NCBI GenBank assembly: GCA_023150835.1
Contig: JAKLKB010000059.1
Coordinates: forward strand, 1-36,733
Direction: 5' to 3'
DNA: 36,733 nt
Source: Myxococcota bacterium
GTDB lineage: Bacteria > Myxococcota_C > UBA6777
A model generated the notes under the pieces. It worked only from the letters and a program-made list of their open reading frames with translations, searched no databases and was not told where the DNA came from. The position numbers and the translations under genes were made by a program. Each line of letters opens with the position of its first letter. Within the stretch, counting starts at the first letter, position 1. Of the stretch, positions 3,004 to 36,733 are shown in pieces.

Positions 3004-3107
3004 CCGCAAGGGAACTTTGTCCCCTTGACCCCGTATTGGCGAAGAGATCACAGATTTTTCACACAGACGACTCTGTCGCTTGAACCTTCACGAACACGGG
3101 GTTTTTT
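2984..3107 (+). repeat. Intergenic hairpin repeat, module A copy 1
   Basis: Begins with the perfect stem GCGGGG-TTCCA-CCCCGC, followed by a CAAGGG...CCCTTG stem, the core TTGACCCCGTATTGGCGAAG, a TTTTTCA segment, GTCGCTTGAA and a terminal CGAACACGGGG plus T-run. The same order of blocks recurs six more times in the window. It lies between the DUF971 gene and the TonB receptor gene. Confidence 0.85.
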
Positions 3108-3133
3108 GGCGGATGCGACGCTTCAAGAAGAAG

Positions 3134-6069: not shown

Positions 6070-6097
6070 TGGGATAAGATCGACACAATTCGATGAT

Positions 6098-6222
6098 GTG
6101 GGACTCTGCCCCACACCCCGCGCCCTTAGCGCGGCTCCCTTGACCCCGTATCAGCGAAAAGATCACAGGTTTTTCAAAAAAATAGCTCCGTCGCTTGAAG
6201 TGTCGCGAACACGGCTTTTTTT
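6098..6222 (+). repeat. Intergenic hairpin repeat, module A copy 2
   Basis: Carries the blocks GTGGGACTCTGCCCCAC, a GCGCCCTTAGCGCGGC variant of the second stem, CCCTTGACCCCGTATCAGCGAA, TTTTTCAAA, GTCGCTTGAA and CGAACACGGC plus T-run. It shares the variant second stem with copy 3, which suggests that these two are a subfamily. It lies between purK and the split hydrolase. Confidence 0.85.
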
Positions 6223-6227
6223 GATTT

Positions 6228-6352
6228 ATACGAAATCCGCAGGGTGTGTGAGCGTAAAAATGTAGGGGCAGTCCCCCTGTGGCTGCCTAACCACAGGGCT
6301 TTCACAACGGATCGCATCGGCCCTTCGTGTACGCTTCTCACGGATATCGTCT
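6228..6352 (+). repeat. MITE-like element, module B copy 1
   Basis: About 120 bp starting ATACGAAATCCGC and ending CGGATATCGT, an imperfect terminal inverted repeat. The interior has GTAGGGGCAGTCCCC and TGTGGCTGCCTAACCACAGGG hairpin-like blocks. Its right end reaches the stop codon of the hydrolase C-terminal fragment. It follows module A copy 2 by only a few bases. Confidence 0.75.
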
Positions 6353-6588
6353 TAGCGTATAGGAACAGCGGGGGTGGGCGAAGCAGGTGCAACAGAGGTT
6401 TTGGGCAGAAGAGGCTTAAGAAACCCCATCACAGCGTCAAAAAGGACGGGAGTGGTACGAGGAGAAAGGATGTCCCCCGCGAGAACATGCGAGGCTGGAT
6501 CGCTGGAAGTGTCCAAGACAAGGAGCTTTTTGTGTGGACTCCCTAACAACGCAAAGCGCGACTCGATCAGTCGGGGATCGAGGACTTG
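6352..6588 (-). pseudogene. Alpha/beta hydrolase, C-terminal fragment
   Basis: The minus-strand frame reads QVLDPRLIESRFALLGSP, then a strand, then DPASHVLAGDILSPRTTPVLFDAVMGFLKPL. This is the C-terminal end of an alpha/beta hydrolase: the segment after the acid residue and the catalytic His region (SHVLAGDILSP). It has no start of its own and abuts the IscB element; the last seven or so codons of iscB are read in another frame of this same DNA. The matching N-terminal fragment is at 8210-8617 on the other side of the element. The fragment ends at TAA 6352 inside a MITE-like repeat. Confidence 0.75.
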
Positions 6589-7943
6589 GCGAGGGGGGAT
6601 TGATCGCCGTCATGTCTTCGTGTGTAGGCGTATCCATCGGTGTGTTGAAGGAGACGACAATGTTTGTAAGAAATGCCTTGTGTGGTGCCACTTCGGGTTT
6701 TGATGTTGAAACTGCCCGTGCTTCGCACCGCCACCCGTCCGACGTATCGGCCTGCTTTCTTTCCCTTCGGAACCACCGCTTCCACCATGTCTCCTGTTTG
6801 AAAACCGTACACTTTCTTCTGTCTCGCTTTCGCCCCTGTTCGGGGGAAGACGACCCTTGGGAGTCTCGCGCTTCGCAAACCGTACTGATCCACGCTACAC
6901 ATCTGCCGACTTCCCCGTCCCATCGCTCTGATCTCCAGCACTTCTTGCGCGAAGTCCACGCGCACATTTTCTCCCGACACGCCCACACACACCGCATCCA
7001 GCCAATGTGTTTTCCGATATTCTTGCACACTTCGGTTGTACTTCGTTTGCCCACCGCTTCCCACTTCCAAGGGTACATCCAACCCACACAACCGCTCTCG
7101 CGATGCCAGTCGGGTGCTGTTGACCGCCGCCGCATCCGACAGCGATGCCTTCGCTTTGGCCATCAACGCCTTGTATTTCTCCGGCTGCTTGGCCAGAAAC
7201 GTCTTTGCGTTTTGGTTGCCCTTCTCTTGGTTGCACCTCGCACACGCCAACGTCAGGTTGCTCACACGATCCGTCCCGTTCTTCGAGCGGGGCACGATAT
7301 GGTCGATTTGCAAAGGAATTTCTGTGGCGTCACAATAGAAACACTTTCGTTTCCACTTTTCGAGCAGATATTCCCGCACTTCGTAGCCACACAAGGTGCC
7401 TTGTTGGTATTCCACACCCTCGATCTCTGGATTCTCTAAGCGTTGCATATCAAAACGCACCGATTCCATCGAGAGAGCGGTCAAAGGCATCCAACGCCTC
7501 AGTCGTTTGGCCCATTGCACCACGTTTTGCACACGACTTTCCAAACTGGGGGCCAGCCAGCCTTTTCTTCGTTTTCGGTGCTGAAAGCGCGGTTTGCGAT
7601 AACGTGTGTGCCGGTACCTTCGCGAACGCCGAACACCGCGACGTTTTTGCAAGGCTTCTTTGATCGCCTGACCGCGATGTTGGAGTTCCGCTGCAAACAC
7701 ACAGGTTTGTCCACGTTTGAATGTGGCGACGACCGCGAGTCCAGAGGTGCGACTGCCGGGATCGACCTTCAAACGCAGGGGCTGTGCATGAGAGGTGGTG
7801 GGTTGTGTGAGGACGATGGTGAAGGGAAAGCGCCGCCACACCGCAGCATGGCCTTGGGAAAGCAGTTGGCGAGCGCGTGCAGGATGACACGGCATCAACG
7901 GCTCTTTCTTCTCGCTGAGTACCAAGACTCTGTTTTGTGCCAT
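6567..7943 (-). CDS. iscB: IscB RNA-guided nuclease (RuvC-HNH)
   Basis: IscB proteins are RNA-guided DNA endonucleases of IS200/IS605-type elements and relatives of the ancestor of Cas9. The 458-residue protein has every expected part: the N-terminal PLMP motif (residues 15-18) followed by the RARQLL...GRA-like helix, RuvC-I DPGSRTSG with D61, an Arg-rich bridge helix (101-127), RuvC-II SMESVRFD with E160, an HNH domain (201-241) with C201/C204, D214-H215 and C234/C237 ligands, and RuvC-III HWLDAVCVG with H313 and D316. All catalytic residues are intact, so activity is plausible. The start at 7943 follows the conserved 3' hairpin of the omega-RNA directly. No TnpA transposase lies nearby, so the element would move only in trans. 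The C-terminal few residues appear to be encoded by host hydrolase DNA. Confidence 0.95.
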   Translation of the reverse strand: MAQNRVLVLSEKKEPLMPCHPARARQLLSQGHAAVWRRFPFTIVLTQPTTSHAQPLRLKVDPGSRTSGLAVVATFKRGQTCVFAAELQHRGQAIKEALQKRRGVRRSRRYRHTRYRKPRFQHRKRRKGWLAPSLESRVQNVVQWAKRLRRWMPLTALSMESVRFDMQRLENPEIEGVEYQQGTLCGYEVREYLLEKWKRKCFYCDATEIPLQIDHIVPRSKNGTDRVSNLTLACARCNQEKGNQNAKTFLAKQPEKYKALMAKAKASLSDAAAVNSTRLASRERLCGLDVPLEVGSGGQTKYNRSVQEYRKTHWLDAVCVGVSGENVRVDFAQEVLEIRAMGRGSRQMCSVDQYGLRSARLPRVVFPRTGAKARQKKVYGFQTGDMVEAVVPKGKKAGRYVGRVAVRSTGSFNIKTRSGTTQGISYKHCRLLQHTDGYAYTRRHDGDQSPLAKSSIPD

Positions 7944-8209
7944 GAAGACGTTACCTTTCCCCGTATTGACGGGGTGTTCTCGAAACGTGCGTTTCGGTAA
8001 AGTTCTCCTTGCCCGGTTGGACGAGAGGTTTTGAAGACACCGCACAGTCTTACCCAAGAACTGTTTGAAGTGTCGCGCAGATGCGTCGGACTGGAGAAGC
8101 ATCCGACTGTGCCTATTTATTCTCTCCCAACGTTTCCTTTCCTTACGAAAAGGGGGCGGGTCAACGGGGCTTACCGAAGCAAGCCCGCCCCTTCAGGGGT
8201 GGGTCGTTG
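6585..8209 (-). mobile_element. IscB insertion element (no transposase)
   Basis: The element consists of the omega-RNA region and iscB and splits an alpha/beta hydrolase gene. The left boundary is placed near 8209, where the hydrolase reading frame loses family similarity after AWAQDAR, and the right boundary is near 6585-6600, where it resumes at QVLDPRLIE. Elements of this type do not make long target duplications. Neither tnpA nor tnpB is present. Boundaries are estimated to within about 15 bases. Confidence 0.7.
7944..8209 (-). ncRNA. Omega-RNA (HEARO-type) of the IscB element
   Basis: This 266-base stretch between iscB and the hydrolase fragment holds no ORF with support but is full of pairing. 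On the minus strand these include CCCCGTCAATACGGGG (7974-7959) near the iscB start, GAAAC-GCAC-GTTTC (7981-7996), GTCGGA/TCCGAC (8085-8107), the long-range pair GCACAGTC/GACTGTGC (8042-8049 with 8105-8112), GGGGCGGG/CCCGCCCC (8153-8160 with 8184-8191), and a CCCC-TGAA-GGGG hairpin at the outer edge. Several pairings overlap, which fits pseudoknots. HEARO/omega-RNAs are known to sit directly 5' of iscB with the guide at their 5' end, so the guide here would come from hydrolase DNA just beyond 8209. The exact RNA ends are inferred. Confidence 0.8.
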
Positions 8210-8617
8210 ACGGGCATCTTGCGCCCATGCTTGCACGCTCGCCTCTGCAAGAGCATCTCCCGAACGCCCATGCCCACGCAGCCGAGGGAAAAACACATTC
8301 GCTTGTAAAGCATCCGCCAACTTGGAACAGAGCGGCTCCACTTCCATGCGGCTCCCTGAAAATCCATGAAAAAACACGATAGAAACGGGCGTTTGGGCTT
8401 TGGTCTTTGGATGATACCAGCGGATCATCTTTTGCGTTTGGGGCCGAATATCGGAGAAACGCGCCTCTTGCTTTCTGAGCAAGGCATCCAGATCGCTTTC
8501 CAGCATCACAGGCTGGGTCGTGGTGTTTGTATCGACACGTGGCCCCAAGGCCACCACAACGCCCAAGACCACAACCATCCCAAATCCCCACATCGCCGCT
8601 TTTTTCACCCACTGCAC
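8210..8617 (-). pseudogene. Alpha/beta hydrolase, N-terminal fragment
   Basis: Reads an N-terminal membrane anchor (AAMWGFGMVVVLGVVVALG), then IVFFHGFSGSRMEVEPL (oxyanion-hole strand) and FFPRLRGHGRSGDALAEASVQAWAQDAR, typical of alpha/beta hydrolases before the nucleophile elbow. The frame then enters the IscB element and stops at 8171. The C-terminal fragment is at 6352-6588. The nucleophile Ser motif and roughly 100-150 residues of the middle are absent from both pieces, so a deletion accompanied or followed the insertion. A GTG at 8617 with GGAGTGAGG upstream is the likeliest start; a TTG at 8731 would lie within a module A repeat. Confidence 0.75.
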
Positions 8618-8707: not shown

Positions 8708-8828
8708 ATCCCCGTGTTCGTGGGCGTACAAGCGACACCGCTGTGCGTTTGAAAAACCTGTACTCGCATCGCCGATACGGGGTCAAGGGGGCCGCGCTAA
8801 GGGCGCGGGGCGTGGGGCAGAGTCCCAC
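8708..8828 (-). repeat. Intergenic hairpin repeat, module A copy 3
   Basis: Reverse-oriented copy with CCCCGTGTTCG, AAGCGACA, GTTTGAAAAAC, CATCGCCGATACGGGGTCAAGGG, the GCCGCGCTAAGGGCGCGG stem variant and a closing GTGGGGCAGAGTCCCAC. It lies upstream of the split hydrolase and downstream of the next gene. Confidence 0.85.
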
Positions 8829-8855
8829 AAAAGCCATGCAACCGCACAAAGCGAA

Positions 8856-10800: not shown

Positions 10801-10929
10801 CCCGAAAAACTCGTGTACGCGCCTCTCCAAGCGACAGAGTCGTTGGTTTGAAAAACAATGATCGCTTCGCCGATATGGGGTCAAGGGGCGACAGTCTATG
10901 GCGGGGTTTGGGGTTCCAACCCCACAAAC
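10801..10929 (-). repeat. Intergenic hairpin repeat, module A copy 4
   Basis: Reverse-oriented copy: CCCGAAAAACTCGTGTACG, AAGCGACAGAGTCGTTGGTTTG, CTTCGCCGATATGGGGTCAAGGGG, then the CGACAGTCTATGGCGGGG variant and a GGGGTTCCAACCCC stem. It shares the CGACAGTCTAT block with copy 6, marking a second subfamily. It lies between the TPR gene and the hydrolase gene. Confidence 0.85.
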
Positions 10930-16002: not shown

Positions 16003-16126
16003 GTGGGGTTTCACCCCACGCCCCACAAGGGAGCTTTGCCCCCTTGACCCCGTATCGGCGAAGAGAACATCACTTTTCAAACCAACGGCTATGTCGCTTG
16101 AGCGTGTACGAACACAGGGGGCTTCT
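16003..16126 (+). repeat. Intergenic hairpin repeat, module A copy 5
   Basis: Opens with the perfect stem GTGGGG-TTTCA-CCCCAC, then CAAGGGAGCTTTGCCCCCTTG, ACCCCGTATCGGCGAAGAG, TTTTCAAACCAACGGC, GTCGCTTGAGCGTGTACGAACACAGGGGG. Compared with copy 1 the outer stem pair G-C is replaced by T-A, a compensatory change. It lies 60 bases after the MopE/WD40 gene and may act as its terminator. Confidence 0.88.
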
Positions 16127-16891: not shown

Positions 16892-17013
16892 AAAGCCCCC
16901 GTGTTCGGGCAACAACAAGCGACAGCATCGTTGGTTTGAAAGACCTCTGCTCTCTTCGCCGATACGGGGTCAAGGGGCGACAGTCTATAGCGGGGTGTGG
17001 TATCTCGCCCCAC
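16892..17013 (-). repeat. Intergenic hairpin repeat, module A copy 6
   Basis: Reverse-oriented copy starting AAGCCCCCGTGTTCGGGC (itself a CCCG-TGTT-CGGG hairpin), then AAGCGACAGCATCGTTGGTTTG, CTTCGCCGATACGGGGTCAAGGGG, CGACAGTCTATAGCGGGG and a GGTATCTCGCCCCAC end. It separates the BMC-H gene from the aldolase fusion and ends only 28 bases before the aldolase start, so it lies in that gene's leader. Confidence 0.85.
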
Positions 17014-36574: not shown

Positions 36575-36692
36575 GTGGGGCTTTGCCCCACACCCCACAA
36601 GGGAGTCCGCTCCCTTGACCCCGTGTTTGGCGGAACGAACAGATGTTTTTCAAACAAACAACGGCTCCGCTTGGACGAGCCCGAACACGGGA
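36575..36692 (+). repeat. Intergenic hairpin repeat, module A copy 7
   Basis: Begins with the perfect stem GTGGGG-CTTTG-CCCCAC, then CAAGGGAGTCCGCTCCCTTG, ACCCCGTGTTTGGCGGAACG, TTTTTCAAACAAACAACGGC and GCCCGAACACGGGAG. The second stem keeps full pairing despite several differences from copies 1 and 5. Confidence 0.88.
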
Positions 36693-36733
36693 GTTGTTGA
36701 TAGGGGGAAGATTTGTCGTTCTCACGTATGCTT

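What the first reader, a model, noticed from the sequence alone, without database searches (positions are those of the whole stretch)
6352..8617. IscB/omega-RNA element inserted in an alpha/beta hydrolase gene, with loss of its catalytic middle
The N-terminal piece (to AWAQDAR, 8210) and C-terminal piece (from QVLDPRLIE, about 6588) belong to one hydrolase family, but the nucleophile elbow and about 100-150 residues are in neither. This means the IscB element came with, or was followed by, a deletion. The element has all IscB active-site residues and no transposase. The guide, read from DNA just outside the element's left end, would be hydrolase sequence, so the complex would target an uninterrupted allele, a homing-like arrangement.
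Basis: partly seen in the sequence, partly recalled or inferred. Interest (0 to 1): 0.85.

Follow-up and report, generated by a model that had tools for sequence, protein, structure and literature searches.

The report
Truncated IscB element in hydrolase pseudogene
A mobile gene for an RNA-guided DNA-cutting enzyme (IscB, a relative of Cas9's ancestors) sits inside a broken hydrolase gene, and a deletion took both the heart of the hydrolase and the element's own right end; the element is an ordinary member of a known family, but the comparison with an unbroken copy in a sister species is unusually clean.

Summary
Window 6589-8211(-) is an IscB/omega-RNA (HEARO) element inside an alpha/beta-hydrolase gene. 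HEARO RNA is at 7997-8211 (96.7 bits) and IscB at 6567-7943 (428 bits), with RuvC, HNH and PLMP residues in place. A congener (Myxococcota MAG KLAP109) has the uninterrupted 340-aa gene. About 380 nt, with the GSSTG nucleophile, are absent from the window and not found elsewhere in its genome.

Comparison with sibling copies changes the interpretation. Intact copies start GTCAAC and end in a hairpin plus ...CG, inserted 5' of [AG]TGA, the TAM type known for the related IsrB. The window copy stops inside that right-end hairpin. So the deletion (about 29 nt of element plus about 380 nt of hydrolase) most likely struck an inserted copy, which has probably lost its mobility. No full-length Y1 transposase was found in either genus member.

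The guide is hydrolase sequence, and 28 nt upstream of the insertion match the congener's intact allele perfectly, but that allele carries GCGA where NTGA is expected. Targeting of that allele is therefore doubtful. Homing-like retention is the published model for this family, not shown here. It is a new member of a known kind, with some comparative value.

The parts
8212..8608 (-). 5' fragment of the alpha/beta-hydrolase gene (HGFSGSR oxyanion region, GHG), ending AWAQDA; its last 13-16 nt (8212-8227) are the omega-RNA guide TGGGCGCAAGATGCCC
   Evidence: blastn and alignment to the intact congener gene L014, 92% nt identity over 450 nt; dN/dS 0.07
7997..8211 (-). omega RNA (HEARO) scaffold; left end of the element, GTCAACGACCC
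   Evidence: Rfam RF02033, 96.7 bits; the same left end in 22 other copies, nearly all with unrelated flanks
6567..7943 (-). IscB (RRXRR/RuvC with HNH), 458 aa from MAQNRV; the last residues and the stop codon are read from hydrolase DNA past the deletion junction
   Evidence: NCBIfam guided_IscB, Pfam, alignment with 3 relatives, PDB IscB matches; dN/dS 0.23 against the C172 copy
6589..6615 (-). truncated right end: only the 5' arm and loop of the right-end hairpin (GGCGATCAATCCCCCCTCGCC) are left; the 3' arm and terminus (AAGGGGG..CGCGCC..CG) are missing
   Evidence: comparison with right ends of C135, C172, C68, C193, C87, g1C14 and NP119 copies; DNA folds
6352..6588 (-). 3' fragment of the hydrolase gene (QVLDPRLIE..., with the catalytic-His motif SHVLAGD), stop at 6352
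   Evidence: 88% nt identity to L014 2278-2505 over 228 nt; in frame with the congener protein

Best explanation
It is an IscB/omega-RNA (HEARO, ISC-type) insertion element of the IS200/IS605 style, one of several copies in this myxococcotal genus. It inserted in the sense direction inside a hydrolase gene, most likely 5' of a GTGA tetranucleotide (CGT GAA, synonymous with the CGC GAA of the congener). A later or repair-linked deletion of about 410 nt then removed the element's right-end hairpin arm and terminus together with about 126 codons of the hydrolase, including the nucleophile. The remaining copy still has an intact IscB frame and omega RNA. The omega RNA would take its guide from the hydrolase DNA just upstream (TGGGCGCAAGATGCCC) and direct IscB to hydrolase alleles that lack the element and have NTGA next to the guide match. 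Having lost its right end, this copy probably cannot be excised by a TnpA, so it is a stranded but possibly still nuclease-competent copy. Shown by sequence: element identity, both junctions, the intact congener allele, the missing right end, the guide sequence, purifying selection on IscB. Inferred: the GTGA target, deletion after insertion, present activity, and mobilisation in trans by a Y1 TnpA.
For: IscB and HEARO assignments. Intact syntenic allele in the congener. Left end the same in 22 other copies. Right ends of sibling copies continue through a hairpin to CG|[AG]TGA while the window copy stops in the hairpin. Clean insertions elsewhere: C193 joined flanks give one 175-aa frame, and the empty sites of g1C139, g1C178 and g1C114 in this genome continue with ATGA right after the insertion point. 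Same end rule in Vreelandella copies. IscB dN/dS 0.23. NTGA-type TAM measured for the related IsrB (PMC9581776).
Against: The original 3' flank is gone, so the GTGA target is inferred and the congener reads GCGA. No full-length TnpA was found in G000 or G001, so the mobiliser is unidentified. The host genome is fragmented (239 contigs); a local assembly error at a GC-rich hairpin cannot be excluded without reads. The 4 clustered base changes in the left hairpin arm (GCTTCC to GATCAA) are not explained by a simple deletion.
Confidence: 0.8

Rival explanations
1. Insertion and deletion were one event: the element integrated by an unusual or one-ended route that joined a truncated right end to hydrolase DNA about 380 nt downstream.
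For: The deletion begins inside the element's right end and runs straight into the flank, with no remnant of the terminus or of the adjacent target DNA.
Against: Other copies that can be checked are clean: C193 restores one frame, and three empty sites place the insertion point exactly before ATGA. Both ends of the family are otherwise constant.
Confidence: 0.12
2. Scar of a failed copy-back: IscB cut an element-free sister allele, repair copied the element from the left flank, stalled at the right-end hairpin and was joined to the resected right side. (A special case of the repair-linked deletion in the best explanation.)
For: Precise left junction, break in the loop of the right-end hairpin, loss of DNA only on the TAM side, and a patch GATCAA in the left arm that also occurs at the far edge of the deletion in the congener. 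The copy-back model is published for IS200/IS605 TnpB (PMC11870625).
Against: GATCAA occurs in 2.4% of random 36-nt stretches, so the patch is weak evidence. An ordinary deletion at a hairpin gives the same picture. No activity data.
Confidence: 0.12
3. Assembly artefact: the repeat family and the GC-rich hairpin caused a false join.
For: Genome of 239 contigs; in the congener MAG many HEARO copies sit at contig ends, so the repeat does disturb assembly.
Against: Both flanks are the two halves of one syntenic gene, in order and orientation. The junction region has its own diverged bases (GATCAA), which a collapsed repeat would not make.
Confidence: 0.05

Closest known systems
IscB/omega-RNA (OMEGA) systems, e.g. 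OgeuIscB; HEARO RNA RF02033
   Same: Protein domain order PLMP - RuvC/bridge (RRXRR) - HNH, catalytic residues, and omega RNA upstream of the ORF with the guide taken from 5' flanking DNA
   Different: Right end deleted; a 10-aa insertion (LRSARLPRVV) before FPRTG, shared with the relic copy C68; IscB tail and stop codon come from host DNA
IS200/IS605-type elements (ISC group) mobilised by Y1 TnpA
   Same: Right-end hairpin; insertion next to a fixed tetranucleotide ([AG]TGA, i.e. TCAY on the other strand) that equals the TAM type; no target duplication at the sites read
   Different: No tnpA in the element or full-length in the two genus genomes held; a published survey also found only a few HEARO nucleases next to tnpA (PMC9755519)
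TnpB 'homing-like' retention or gene drive
   Same: Guide recorded from the insertion site, so an element-free allele is the expected target (PMC11870625)
   Different: Not tested here; this copy has lost the right end, and the only element-free allele known lacks the expected TAM

Membership tests
IscB (RNA-guided endonuclease) | Split RuvC with inserted HNH, PLMP N-terminus, Arg-rich bridge | tested here: met
   guided_IscB 428.5 bits (cut-off 175); RRXRR 234 bits; HNH 47.5 bits; PLMPCHPARAR motif; D61, E160, HNH H215 and HWLD 313-316 conserved with relatives
IscB (RNA-guided endonuclease) | omega RNA directly upstream of the ORF | tested here: met
   RF02033 over the full model 1-211, 96.7 bits, ending about 50 nt before the ATG
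IscB (RNA-guided endonuclease) | RNA-guided cleavage of a target next to a TAM | not testable with these tools
   needs in vitro cleavage; sequence only gives the candidate guide and the [AG]TGA motif of sibling copies
IS200/IS605-type mobile element | defined ends with hairpin, insertion next to a fixed tetranucleotide (element family) | tested here: met
   met for the sibling copies: GTCAAC left end, right hairpin and CG|[AG]TGA
IS200/IS605-type mobile element | intact right end in the window copy | tested here: not met
   the copy stops within the hairpin; 3' arm and terminus absent
IS200/IS605-type mobile element | Y1 (HUH) transposase TnpA, in cis or in trans | tested here: inconclusive
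   none in the element; only two weak hits in G000, one of them a 28-residue match upstream of a tnpB-like frame; none in G001; full-length in G002-G004; G000 is 93% and G001 86% complete
Homing endonuclease-like drive | cuts the element-free allele and is copied into it | tested here: inconclusive
   guide matches the congener allele perfectly, but the adjacent tetranucleotide is GCGA, not NTGA; no activity test possible

The most novel reading that the evidence does not exclude
The locus is a natural record of IscB-driven conflict. The truncated copy is the scar of an aborted copy-back repair, and the congener's intact alleles are escape alleles. At both intragenic sites checked (this hydrolase and the gene holding C193) the guide match is perfect and the expected TAM T is a C, a synonymous codon. 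At three further sites the differences fall in the guide's last 13 bases. All five element-free alleles would be poor targets (chance from local divergence about 0.035, computed post hoc).
Probability: 0.1. Interest if true: 0.65.

Novelty: new member of a known kind. Interest (0 to 1): 0.36.

Why it matters
The genus gives a matched set of filled and empty IscB sites with both alleles readable, which lets target-site choice, TAM and possible escape be studied directly. The window copy shows how such an element can become stranded by losing its right end while IscB and the omega RNA stay intact, and it makes a natural knock-out of the hydrolase.

Tried and rejected
Hydrolase fragments alone give no Pfam hit; the congener gene was needed. 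The first idea, that the element ended exactly at the hydrolase junction, was rejected once sibling right ends were read on. The idea that the 10-aa insertion in IscB is decay was rejected: relic C68 carries it too. Domestication as a nuclease-dead regulator was considered and rejected: catalytic residues intact and dN/dS 0.23. L015/L016 do not tell whether the ancestral codon was CGT or CGC, since other codons stand there. The GATCAA patch as proof of templated repair was judged too weak (2.4% by chance). Three primary papers on HEARO/ISC/IscB biology are not held in the library, so whether the start-codon preference is already described could not be settled. No structure prediction was run, since family membership was already clear from sequence.

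Full report
What is there. On the minus strand, window 8212-8608 and 6352-6588 are the two ends of one alpha/beta-hydrolase gene, and between them lies an IscB/omega-RNA element, 6589-8211. The omega RNA matches Rfam HEARO over the whole model (8211-7997, 96.7 bits). IscB runs from MAQNRV (about 7943) to a stop at 6567-6569 and matches NCBIfam guided_IscB with 428.5 bits, Pfam RRXRR and HNH, and solved IscB structures. The catalytic residues line up with relatives.

The intact allele. The host is G000, a 7.56-Mb, 239-contig genome. A member of the same genus, identified by its records as Myxococcota MAG KLAP109, has the locus without the element (L014). It carries a 340-aa hydrolase with GSSTG, flanked by the same genes. 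The window keeps everything up to L014 1898 and resumes at 2278; 379 nt lie between. These hold the nucleophile serine and, by position, the charge-relay aspartate; the histidine motif SHVLAGD is kept. More distant homologues L015 and L016 have the segment too, and it was not found elsewhere in the host genome (that search had no positive control). So the segment was lost, not absent from the start. The N-terminal fragment still shows dN/dS 0.07 against the congener, which suggests that the loss is recent.

The element's ends. All 22 other copies examined start at GTCAAC or a one-base variant, nearly all with unrelated sequence upstream (one shared site, C172, is ancestral to both species). 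On the right, intact copies in this genome (C172, C193, C87, C135; C68 on its right side), in the congener and in NP119 run through a hairpin, (G)GCGCTTCCTCCCCCCTC...AAGGGGG..CGCGCC, to a terminal CG, and the host DNA then begins with ATGA or GTGA. Vreelandella copies show the same rule. The window copy stops after CCCCCCTCGCC, in the loop of that hairpin, and goes straight to hydrolase DNA. About 29 nt of element and the adjacent target are therefore missing together with the hydrolase segment.

Insertions are otherwise clean. Joining the flanks of C193 restores one 175-aa frame. Three congener insertions have element-free alleles in this genome, and in each the host DNA after the insertion point begins with ATGA, the start codon of the next gene. 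The tetranucleotide is of the type measured as the TAM of the related IsrB (NTGA; PMC9581776).

Guide and target. Bases just outside the left end are hydrolase sequence, guide TGGGCGCAAGATGCCC. The congener's allele matches perfectly over the last 28 nt before the insertion point, but reads GCGA where [AG]TGA is expected. In this genome that tetranucleotide is deleted; GTGA is a synonymous codon and is the simplest inference. At the C193 site the congener likewise has a perfect guide match and ACGA instead of ATGA. At the three other sites the empty alleles keep ATGA but differ from the guide in its last 13 nt, about the effective guide length reported for IscB (PMC13180657). Given local divergence, the chance that all five differ somewhere in these 16 positions is about 0.035. 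This was computed after the fact and may mean nothing; it is recorded as a lead.

Mobility. No full-length Y1 transposase was found in G000 or G001, while three other family members have one. A 28-residue Y1 match lies upstream of a tnpB-like frame on C42. A survey found only a few HEARO nucleases next to tnpA (PMC9755519). Mobilisation in trans is the usual assumption. Losing the right end should strand this copy, but IscB shows purifying selection (dN/dS 0.23 against C172), so the nuclease was probably functional over most of its recent history.

Mechanism and verdict. The best explanation is a standard IscB element that inserted 5' of GTGA in the hydrolase gene and then suffered an adjacent deletion with one breakpoint in its right-end hairpin. 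Published work explains what the guide is for: cutting element-free copies of the site so that repair restores the element (PMC11870625). That step is established for related TnpB elements and was not tested here. The system is a new member of a known kind.

Noticed in passing
L022 (G000:C193) and L127 (G001:C326): Two independent IscB-type insertions in the same gene, about 40 nt apart, in two species of the genus; the G001 copy sits at ATGAACGCC, the G000 copy at ATGAAGATC.
   Followed up: partly
right flanks of 19 copies in G000, NP119 and Vreelandella loci: Insertion often falls exactly before a gene's start codon (ATGA), so the guide would cover the ribosome-binding site: 8 of 19 start-like against 6% of [AG]TGA tetranucleotides, binomial 7e-6.
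   Followed up: partly
L023 (C135), L025 (C68), L065 (G001:C14), L026 (C180), L024 (C37): Copies with omega RNA or element ends but without a full IscB gene: internally deleted, truncated or short forms, possibly using IscB in trans.
   Followed up: partly
window 6086-6225, 8712-8829, 3022-3108, 10805-10887, 16038-16115, 16899-16976, 36575-36701: Dispersed intergenic repeat of about 80-140 nt (CCCTTGACCCCGTATC...), in both orientations, also in other contigs of both genus members; two copies flank the hydrolase gene as an inverted pair.
   Followed up: no
L028 / L011 (G000:C42): A tnpB-like open frame with a 28-residue Y1 TnpA match just upstream: a decayed IS200/IS605 element.
   Followed up: no
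window IscB near residue 356; L025 (C68): A 10-aa insertion LRSARLPRVV before FPRTG, absent in C172 and NP119 copies but present in relic C68, so a marker of a sublineage.
   Followed up: partly
L065 (G001:C14) against L021 (G000:C172) and L066 (G001:C211): The right flank of g1C14 is orthologous to that of C172 while the left flank of C172 is on g1C211; g1C14 has a different left flank, so either recombination between copies or a mis-assembly.
   Followed up: no
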